From Candidatus Poribacteria bacterium (GTDB taxonomy: Bacteria > Poribacteria > WGA-4E > WGA-3G), in assembly GCA_012267415.1 (NCBI GenBank), contig JAAXGN010000156.1:46890-110889 (forward strand): a DNA stretch of 64,000 bases. Direction: 5' to 3'. The stretch's first letter is position 1. The number at the start of each line of letters is the position of its first letter. A program made the translations under genes and the position numbers. Below are positions 24,831-25,023 of the stretch, in pieces. Under the pieces are notes generated by a model, which was not told the DNA's origin, ran no database searches, and saw only the letters and a list, made by a program, of their open reading frames with translations.

Positions 24831-25023
24831 TGATAATATGATAATAACTCCTCTAAGACTATACTGTGATTAGCTCGAGCGATGATAATAACATGATAAT
24901 AACTTTTCTACTTATTATCATATTATCAAGAAGCTAAAAACGATTAAAGTTATTATCAAGTTATTAGCATTAAAAGCAGAGTTATTATCAACTTATTATC
25001 AACTTATTATCAACTTATTATCA
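24831..25023. promoter_or_regulatory. Candidate oriC: 12-copy array of TTATTATCA/TGATAATAA 9-mers, partly 11-bp phased
   Basis: Minus-oriented copies at 24831, 24839, 24883, 24894; plus-oriented at 24912, 24920, 24950, 24961, 24982, 24993, 25004, 25015 (the copies at 24831, 24920 and 24961 have one mismatch); located between recF and dnaA. Confidence 0.7.

What the first reader, a model, noticed from the sequence alone, without database searches (positions are those of the whole stretch)
24831..25023. Candidate oriC built on a non-canonical 12-copy TTATTATCA array with 11-bp phasing and mirror symmetry
Seen: nine exact and three one-mismatch copies of TTATTATCA. Four point one way (24831, 24839, 24883, 24894) and eight the other (24912, 24920, 24950, 24961, 24982, 24993, 25004, 25015). 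Adjacent copies are often exactly 11 bp apart (TTATTATCAAC x4 at 24982-25023; 24883/24894; 24950/24961), and an 8-bp overlapping pair appears in both arms. A dyad is centred near 24907. I found no canonical TTATCCACA box in the dnaA-flanking intergenic regions. Inference: this is a DnaA-binding origin with a divergent box (TTATTATCA, or TTATCAAC in a shifted register).
Basis: partly seen in the sequence, partly recalled or inferred. Interest (0 to 1): 0.87.

Follow-up and report, generated by a model that had tools for sequence, protein, structure and literature searches.

The report
Replication origin with re-coded DnaA boxes
This is very probably the chromosome replication origin of a Poribacterium whose initiator protein DnaA and its binding sites have changed together to a new DNA 'password' (TTATTATCA instead of TTATCCACA), and close relatives carry one password or the other, always with the matching protein, apparently exchanging the two as one small cassette.

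Summary
In detail: nine exact and three one-mismatch TTATTATCA copies at the stated places (shuffled sequence gives 0.04 exact on average, never more than 2). The array lies between dnaA and recF of a Candidatus Poribacteria genome and is very probably oriC. Across 46 distinct Poribacteria dnaA loci the same array follows dnaA. In 34 the boxes are TTATCCACA, TTATGCACA or TTATCAACA and DnaA's recognition helix reads NHTT or DHTT. In 12, all of one genus, the boxes are TTATTATCA/TTATTAACA and the helix reads NHRTITYA, with Thr435 (E. coli numbering, a known specificity residue) replaced by Arg. There is no exception. The box is thus the canonical 9-mer changed at positions 5-7. DnaA domains I-III reject a single clade for the Arg type (p 0.0002), while domain IV DNA and the adjacent array group by type. 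One species (L016) is a mosaic, consistent with recombinational exchange of a domain IV-oriC cassette. No binding or replication was measured. GC skew in the nearest complete chromosome is uninformative. New variant of a known kind.

The parts
23549..24736 (-). recF, downstream neighbour of the origin
   Evidence: TIGR00611 316 bits, cut-off 172
24737..24812 (.). AT-rich stretch (79% AT) beyond the trios, probable unwinding region (DUE)
   Evidence: role inferred from the BUS model (PMC8287927, PMC10721633)
24813..24830 (+). six TAG trinucleotides (3'-GAT-5' DnaA-trios) directly abutting the box pair
   Evidence: CTA-rich trios kept at this place in the relatives
24831..24839 (-). trio-proximal box ATATTATCA of the BUS pair
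   Evidence: aligns with TTATCCACA/TTATGCACA in relatives
24839..24847 (-). second box TTATTATCA of the BUS pair
24883..24891 (-). box TTATTATCA, inverted double pair
24894..24902 (-). box TTATTATCA, inverted double pair
24912..24920 (+). box TTATTATCA, other arm of the inverted double pair (dyad near 24907)
24920..24928 (+). box ATATTATCA, one mismatch
24950..24958 (+). box TTATTATCA
24961..24969 (+). box TTATTAGCA, one mismatch
24982..25023 (+). four TTATTATCA boxes with 11-bp phasing (24982, 24993, 25004, 25015)
25051..26391 (-). dnaA, 446 aa, full-length initiator
   Evidence: TIGR00362 472.6 bits, cut-off 343.9; best PDB match 8btg, the B. subtilis BUS complex according to PMC11511705
25129..25152 (-). 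codons for NHRTITYA (DnaA 414-421), DNA-recognition helix; Arg416 stands at E. coli Thr435
   Evidence: alignment to 1J1V and 8BTG; coordinates
27067..27201 (+). rpmH, usual dnaA neighbour
   Evidence: read directly from the sequence

Best explanation
The array is the chromosomal oriC. DnaA binds 12-13 copies of a re-coded DnaA box, TTATTATCA: the canonical box with positions 5-7 changed from CCA to TAT or TAA. Arg380 (E. coli Arg399) still reads the TTAT half in the minor groove. The altered recognition helix NHRTITYA, chiefly Arg in place of Thr435, reads the changed half in the major groove. The box pair at 24831-24847 passes DnaA onto the adjoining TAG trios, and the duplex opens towards recF. 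Within the genus, recognition helix and box array change together, probably because they lie within about 0.5 kb and can be exchanged as one cassette by homologous recombination. Shown here: array, architecture, covariation, incongruent trees. Inferred: binding, unwinding, origin activity, cassette exchange.
For: The array lies in the dnaA-recF gap with rpmH on the other side of dnaA. Box pair plus at least three trios is the BUS pattern (PMC8287927), present here with six TAG units. In 46 distinct Poribacteria loci the box type follows the helix type without exception: 12 of 12 Arg-type with TTATTA[AT]CA and at most one canonical copy; 34 of 34 Thr-type with canonical boxes and at most one TTATTAACA. 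Box positions 1-4, 8 and 9 are shared; 5, 6 and 7 differ. A further Arg-type dnaA fragment found by its protein pattern alone (L159) also has TTATTATCA boxes next to it. Thr435 confers sequence-specific binding in E. coli (title of Sutton & Kaguni 1997, cited in PMC11511705; T435M is defective, PMC5742627); helix 434-451 reads TnCACA and Arg399 reads TTA (PMC5742627). DnaA I-III reject one Arg clade (AU p 0.00019); domain IV DNA without the helix and the array group by type. L016: 76 to 20 informative sites with its Arg-type sisters in dnaA I-III and 42 to 8 in recF, but 7 to 19 in domain IV and 4 to 11 at non-box array sites; Fisher p 2e-10.
Against: No binding, footprinting or origin mapping data exist. 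GC skew of the complete relative G009 shows no switch at dnaA, and leading/lagging third-position skew does not differ significantly (p 0.15). Only three phylogenetically independent helix/box contrasts are available, so the sign test cannot reach significance (p 0.25). Without the helix codons, domain IV rejects L016's sister grouping only weakly (p 0.042), and array sites are under functional selection. Several residues change together, so the causal one is not isolated.
Confidence: 0.86

Rival explanations
1. The array is oriC and the box really changed, but helix and boxes changed in place by parallel point mutations or reversions, not by recombination of a cassette.
For: Each helix change can be made by a single nucleotide (ACA to AGA, ATA to ACA, CAT to TAT; codons). 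TTATCAACA and TTATTAACA are natural intermediates between TTATCCACA and TTATTATCA. Third codon positions of the last 51 codons in L016 are still nearest its Arg-type sisters L009 and L008 (0.80 and 0.74 against 0.54-0.64 for Thr-type species).
Against: Non-box array sites, and silent codons at and after the helix, in L016 match other Thr-type species. The same three-residue combination would have to arise or revert several times (at least 5 changes forced on the larger domain I-III tree).
Confidence: 0.3
2. The array is a regulatory operator (for dnaA-recF expression or DnaA titration) and the true origin is elsewhere.
For: No skew support for an origin at dnaA; DnaA also acts as a transcription factor (general knowledge).
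Against: It is the only dense cluster of the 9-mer found in the genome; it has the box pair plus trios unwinding module; the Thr-type homologues are typical dnaA-adjacent clusters with canonical boxes and trios.
Confidence: 0.08
3. The array is a chance AT-rich microsatellite or iteron-like repeat unrelated to DnaA.
For: The region is 24% GC and contains (TAG)6 and TTATTA-rich sequence.
Against: Counts far above dinucleotide shuffles; copies on both strands with conserved layout and strict covariation with DnaA; no plasmid-type Rep gene among the neighbours read.
Confidence: 0.02

Closest known systems
Bacillus subtilis oriC / basal unwinding system (BUS; PMC8287927, PMC10721633)
   Same: Box pair followed by at least three DnaA-trios (3'-GAT-5'), beside dnaA.
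   Different: Boxes are TTATTATCA, not TTATCCACA; no GC spacer here, the six trios abut the box; recF follows dnaA directly; no second array upstream of dnaA was found for this box.
Epsilonproteobacterial DnaA boxes (H. pylori TCATTCACA; PMC5043019, PMC4285127)
   Same: A divergent box attributed to changes in the same recognition helix (helix 5) of domain IV.
   Different: There the 3' CACA is kept and the box differs from E. coli at two positions; here three (5, 6, 7) differ, reaching into the CACA half, and both box types occur within one genus.
Thermotoga maritima origin (12-bp box AAACCTACCACC; PMC4285127, PMC7561715)
   Same: Strongly divergent box together with non-conserved recognition residues.
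   Different: Deep lineage and a different box length; here the 9-bp frame and TTAT half are kept and the change lies within one genus and is repeated.

Membership tests
Bacterial DnaA-dependent oriC | Cluster of DnaA-binding 9-mers in an AT-rich gap next to dnaA | tested here: met
   12-13 copies in a 314-bp, 24% GC gap between dnaA and recF; binding itself not measured
Bacterial DnaA-dependent oriC | Replication starts here (marker frequency, autonomous replication) | not testable with these tools
   no reads or experiments available
Bacterial DnaA-dependent oriC | GC-skew switch at the locus | tested here: inconclusive
   20 samples of 20 kb over complete relative G009 show no chromosome-scale skew; strand-corrected p 0.15
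Basal unwinding system (BUS) | At least three NAN trios within 16 bp of a box (species-specific box allowed) | tested here: met
   six TAG units at 0 bp from the 24831 box; same place in relatives
Basal unwinding system (BUS) | DnaA opens the duplex at the trios | not testable with these tools
   needs a strand-separation assay
Canonical DnaA box TTATNCACA | Match to TTATNCACA in the origin | tested here: not met
   none in the dnaA-flanking gaps; the only one in the window is at 39658
DnaA initiator protein | Full-length DnaA over the curated cut-off, minor-groove Arg399 kept | tested here: met
   TIGR00362 472.6 bits; Arg380 aligns with Arg399
DnaA initiator protein | Canonical recognition motif DHTT | tested here: not met
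   NHRT in the window and 11 relatives
Bipartite origin (arrays on both sides of dnaA) | Second box cluster upstream of dnaA | tested here: not met
   no copy with up to one mismatch between 25978 and 28809
Iteron plasmid origin | Rep gene beside direct repeats | tested here: not met
   neighbours are dnaA, recF, DUF721, gyrB, gyrA, rpmH

The most novel reading that the evidence does not exclude
In one Poribacteria genus the chromosome's initiator-origin recognition code has been switched repeatedly between two mutually exclusive versions, by recombinational exchange of a roughly 0.5-kb cassette that carries the DnaA recognition helix together with its array of binding sites, giving close relatives with incompatible (orthogonal) replication origins.
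Probability: 0.6. Interest if true: 0.85.

Novelty: new variant of a known kind. Interest (0 to 1): 0.74.

Why it matters
DnaA and its box are among the most conserved protein-DNA pairs in bacteria. Apart from Thermotoga, the nine-base boxes tabulated in a review of studied origins differ from TTATCCACA at no more than two positions (PMC4285127); here three contiguous positions change, in the part read by the recognition helix. Having both versions in one genus, with helix and sites matched in every case, is a natural specificity-swap experiment. It makes testable how an essential initiator can change its DNA code at a dozen sites without killing the cell, and offers a candidate orthogonal DnaA/oriC pair. 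Practically, origin finders that look for TTATCCACA should miss such origins.

Tried and rejected
GC skew: 20 stretches of 20 kb from the complete relative G009 follow local gene direction; no chromosome-wide switch, and the third-position leading/lagging comparison gives p 0.15. TTATCAAC register: rejected by alignment with canonical relatives. Second array upstream of dnaA: not found for this box. Other TTATTATCA pairs in the genome: inside signal-peptide codons of WD40 paralogues. His439Tyr or Asp433Asn as the sole cause: L029 has Tyr439 and most Thr-type relatives have Asn433, yet all have canonical boxes, so Thr435Arg with or without Ile438Thr is the better candidate. Pure in-place change in L016: a mosaic pattern argues against it but does not exclude it. 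Viral contigs carrying the phased triple array: none. Literature: no held paper was found that describes TTATTATCA as a DnaA box; a search for Poribacteria with origin terms listed only papers that do not mention Poribacteria. Fujikawa et al. 2003 full text not held, so the base contacts rest on reviews.

Full report
Observation. The window belongs to a 5.46-Mb metagenome-assembled genome whose closest named dnaA relatives are Candidatus Poribacteria. On the minus strand lie gyrA, gyrB, a DUF721 gene, recF and dnaA; rpmH lies on the plus strand beyond dnaA (gyrA and rpmH named from their sequence). The array fills the 314-bp dnaA-recF gap. No canonical TTATNCACA box lies near dnaA.

Six TAG trinucleotides (24813-24830) directly abut the box pair 24831-24847, followed by a 79% AT stretch towards recF. 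A DnaA box followed within 16 bp by at least three NAN trios, most often 3'-GAT-5', is the published basal unwinding system, predicted in 85% of 2070 origins and shown to work in vitro for several species (PMC8287927). Here the GC spacer seen in many relatives (CACAGCCCCTACTACTA) has been replaced by trio sequence.

Relatives. I collected 46 distinct Poribacteria dnaA loci. In 45 of them a box array with the trio module follows dnaA; the last, L061, is cut off 196 bp after dnaA but shows nine boxes there. In 34 loci the boxes are TTATCCACA, TTATGCACA or TTATCAACA, with the same 11-bp phasing (TTGTGGATAACTTGTGGATAAC). In 12, all in the window's genus as far as placed, they are TTATTATCA or TTATTAACA. 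The arrays align: GTTATCCACAA corresponds to GTTATTATCAA, so positions 1-4, 8 and 9 are unchanged and 5-7 differ. This settles the register.

The protein covaries. The DnaA recognition motif is NHTT or DHTT in the 34 and NHRTITYA in the 12, without exception. The alignment to 1J1V and 8BTG puts the new Arg at E. coli Thr435, with Ile438 to Thr and His439 to Tyr relative to the Thr-type sisters; Arg399 is kept. In E. coli Arg399 reads TTA in the minor groove and the helix reads TnCACA; T435M is defective (PMC5742627), and Thr435 is reported to confer sequence-specific binding (reference title in PMC11511705). The part of the box read by the changed helix changed; the part read by the kept Arg did not. 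Asn433 and Tyr439 also occur with canonical boxes, so Thr435Arg with or without Ile438Thr is the leading candidate. A blind check came by chance: the protein pattern hit a contaminating contig in G011 (L159, 87% identical to G009 DNA), and its dnaA-recF gap also has TTATTATCA boxes. Among 88 held genomes of the phylum the Arg-type pattern occurs only in this genus; none of the 49 non-Poribacteria DnaAs fetched has Arg there.

History. On DnaA domains I-III the Arg type is not one clade: the AU test rejects it (p 0.00019) and rejects one clade for the genus's Thr-type species (p 0.0006). A larger protein tree needs 7 changes, 5 forced by well-supported branches. RpoB also places the Thr-type species G001 (L016) inside an Arg-type group. 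By contrast domain IV DNA, even without the helix codons, and the array group by type. In L016, sites that separate its Arg-type sisters from other Thr-type species side with the sisters in dnaA I-III (76 to 20) and recF (42 to 8), but with the Thr-type in domain IV (7 to 19) and at non-box array sites (4 to 11) (Fisher p 2e-10 for flank against core). The simplest reading is recombinational exchange of a short cassette running from domain IV codons through the array; helix and boxes lie close enough to travel together. In-place parallel change is weaker but not excluded: box sites are selected, the domain IV test without the helix is only p 0.042, and most third codon positions near the gene's end still resemble the sisters. 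With only three independent contrasts the sign test is p 0.25; the weight lies in base-level consistency and known structure, not in that test.

Mechanism (inferred). DnaA binds the re-coded boxes on the 11-bp phased arms and the inverted central pairs; the pair next to the trios directs DnaA onto the TAG strand, opening the AT-rich stretch towards recF. DnaA gene, architecture and covariation are shown here; binding, unwinding and origin use are not.

Limits. GC skew in the complete relative G009 is uninformative. The genomes are metagenome assemblies; two relatives (G003, G011) carry an extra dnaA copy or fragment that is probably contamination. The literature search covers open-licence papers only.

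Noticed in passing
families f2 and f4 of the same order, e.g. G070:C1:1336554-1337522, G068:C25:18698-19714: Many order-level relatives carry a second DnaA-like frame of about 395-440 aa, 36-43% identical to the window's DnaA, besides the normal one. It could be a DnaA paralogue with another role.
   Followed up: no
G062, G065, G067, G069 (family f3): All four held genomes of one family of the order gave no DnaA hit at E 1e-60, although three are at least 91% complete: divergent dnaA or a gap in assembly.
   Followed up: no
window 23549-25050: recF follows dnaA directly with the origin between them; dnaN, which often lies there in other bacteria, is not there.
   Followed up: partly
L159 (G011:C211): MAG G011 holds a Thr-type dnaA and a contig with an Arg-type dnaA-oriC 87% identical to G009, probably a contaminating strain.
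   Followed up: yes
L157, L158 (G000:C156:29386 and 34262): Two TTATTATCA pairs inside the signal-peptide region of neighbouring WD40-repeat paralogues; coding coincidence.
   Followed up: yes
G009:C1 (OY282386.1): No chromosome-wide GC skew in sampled stretches; skew follows local gene direction.
   Followed up: partly
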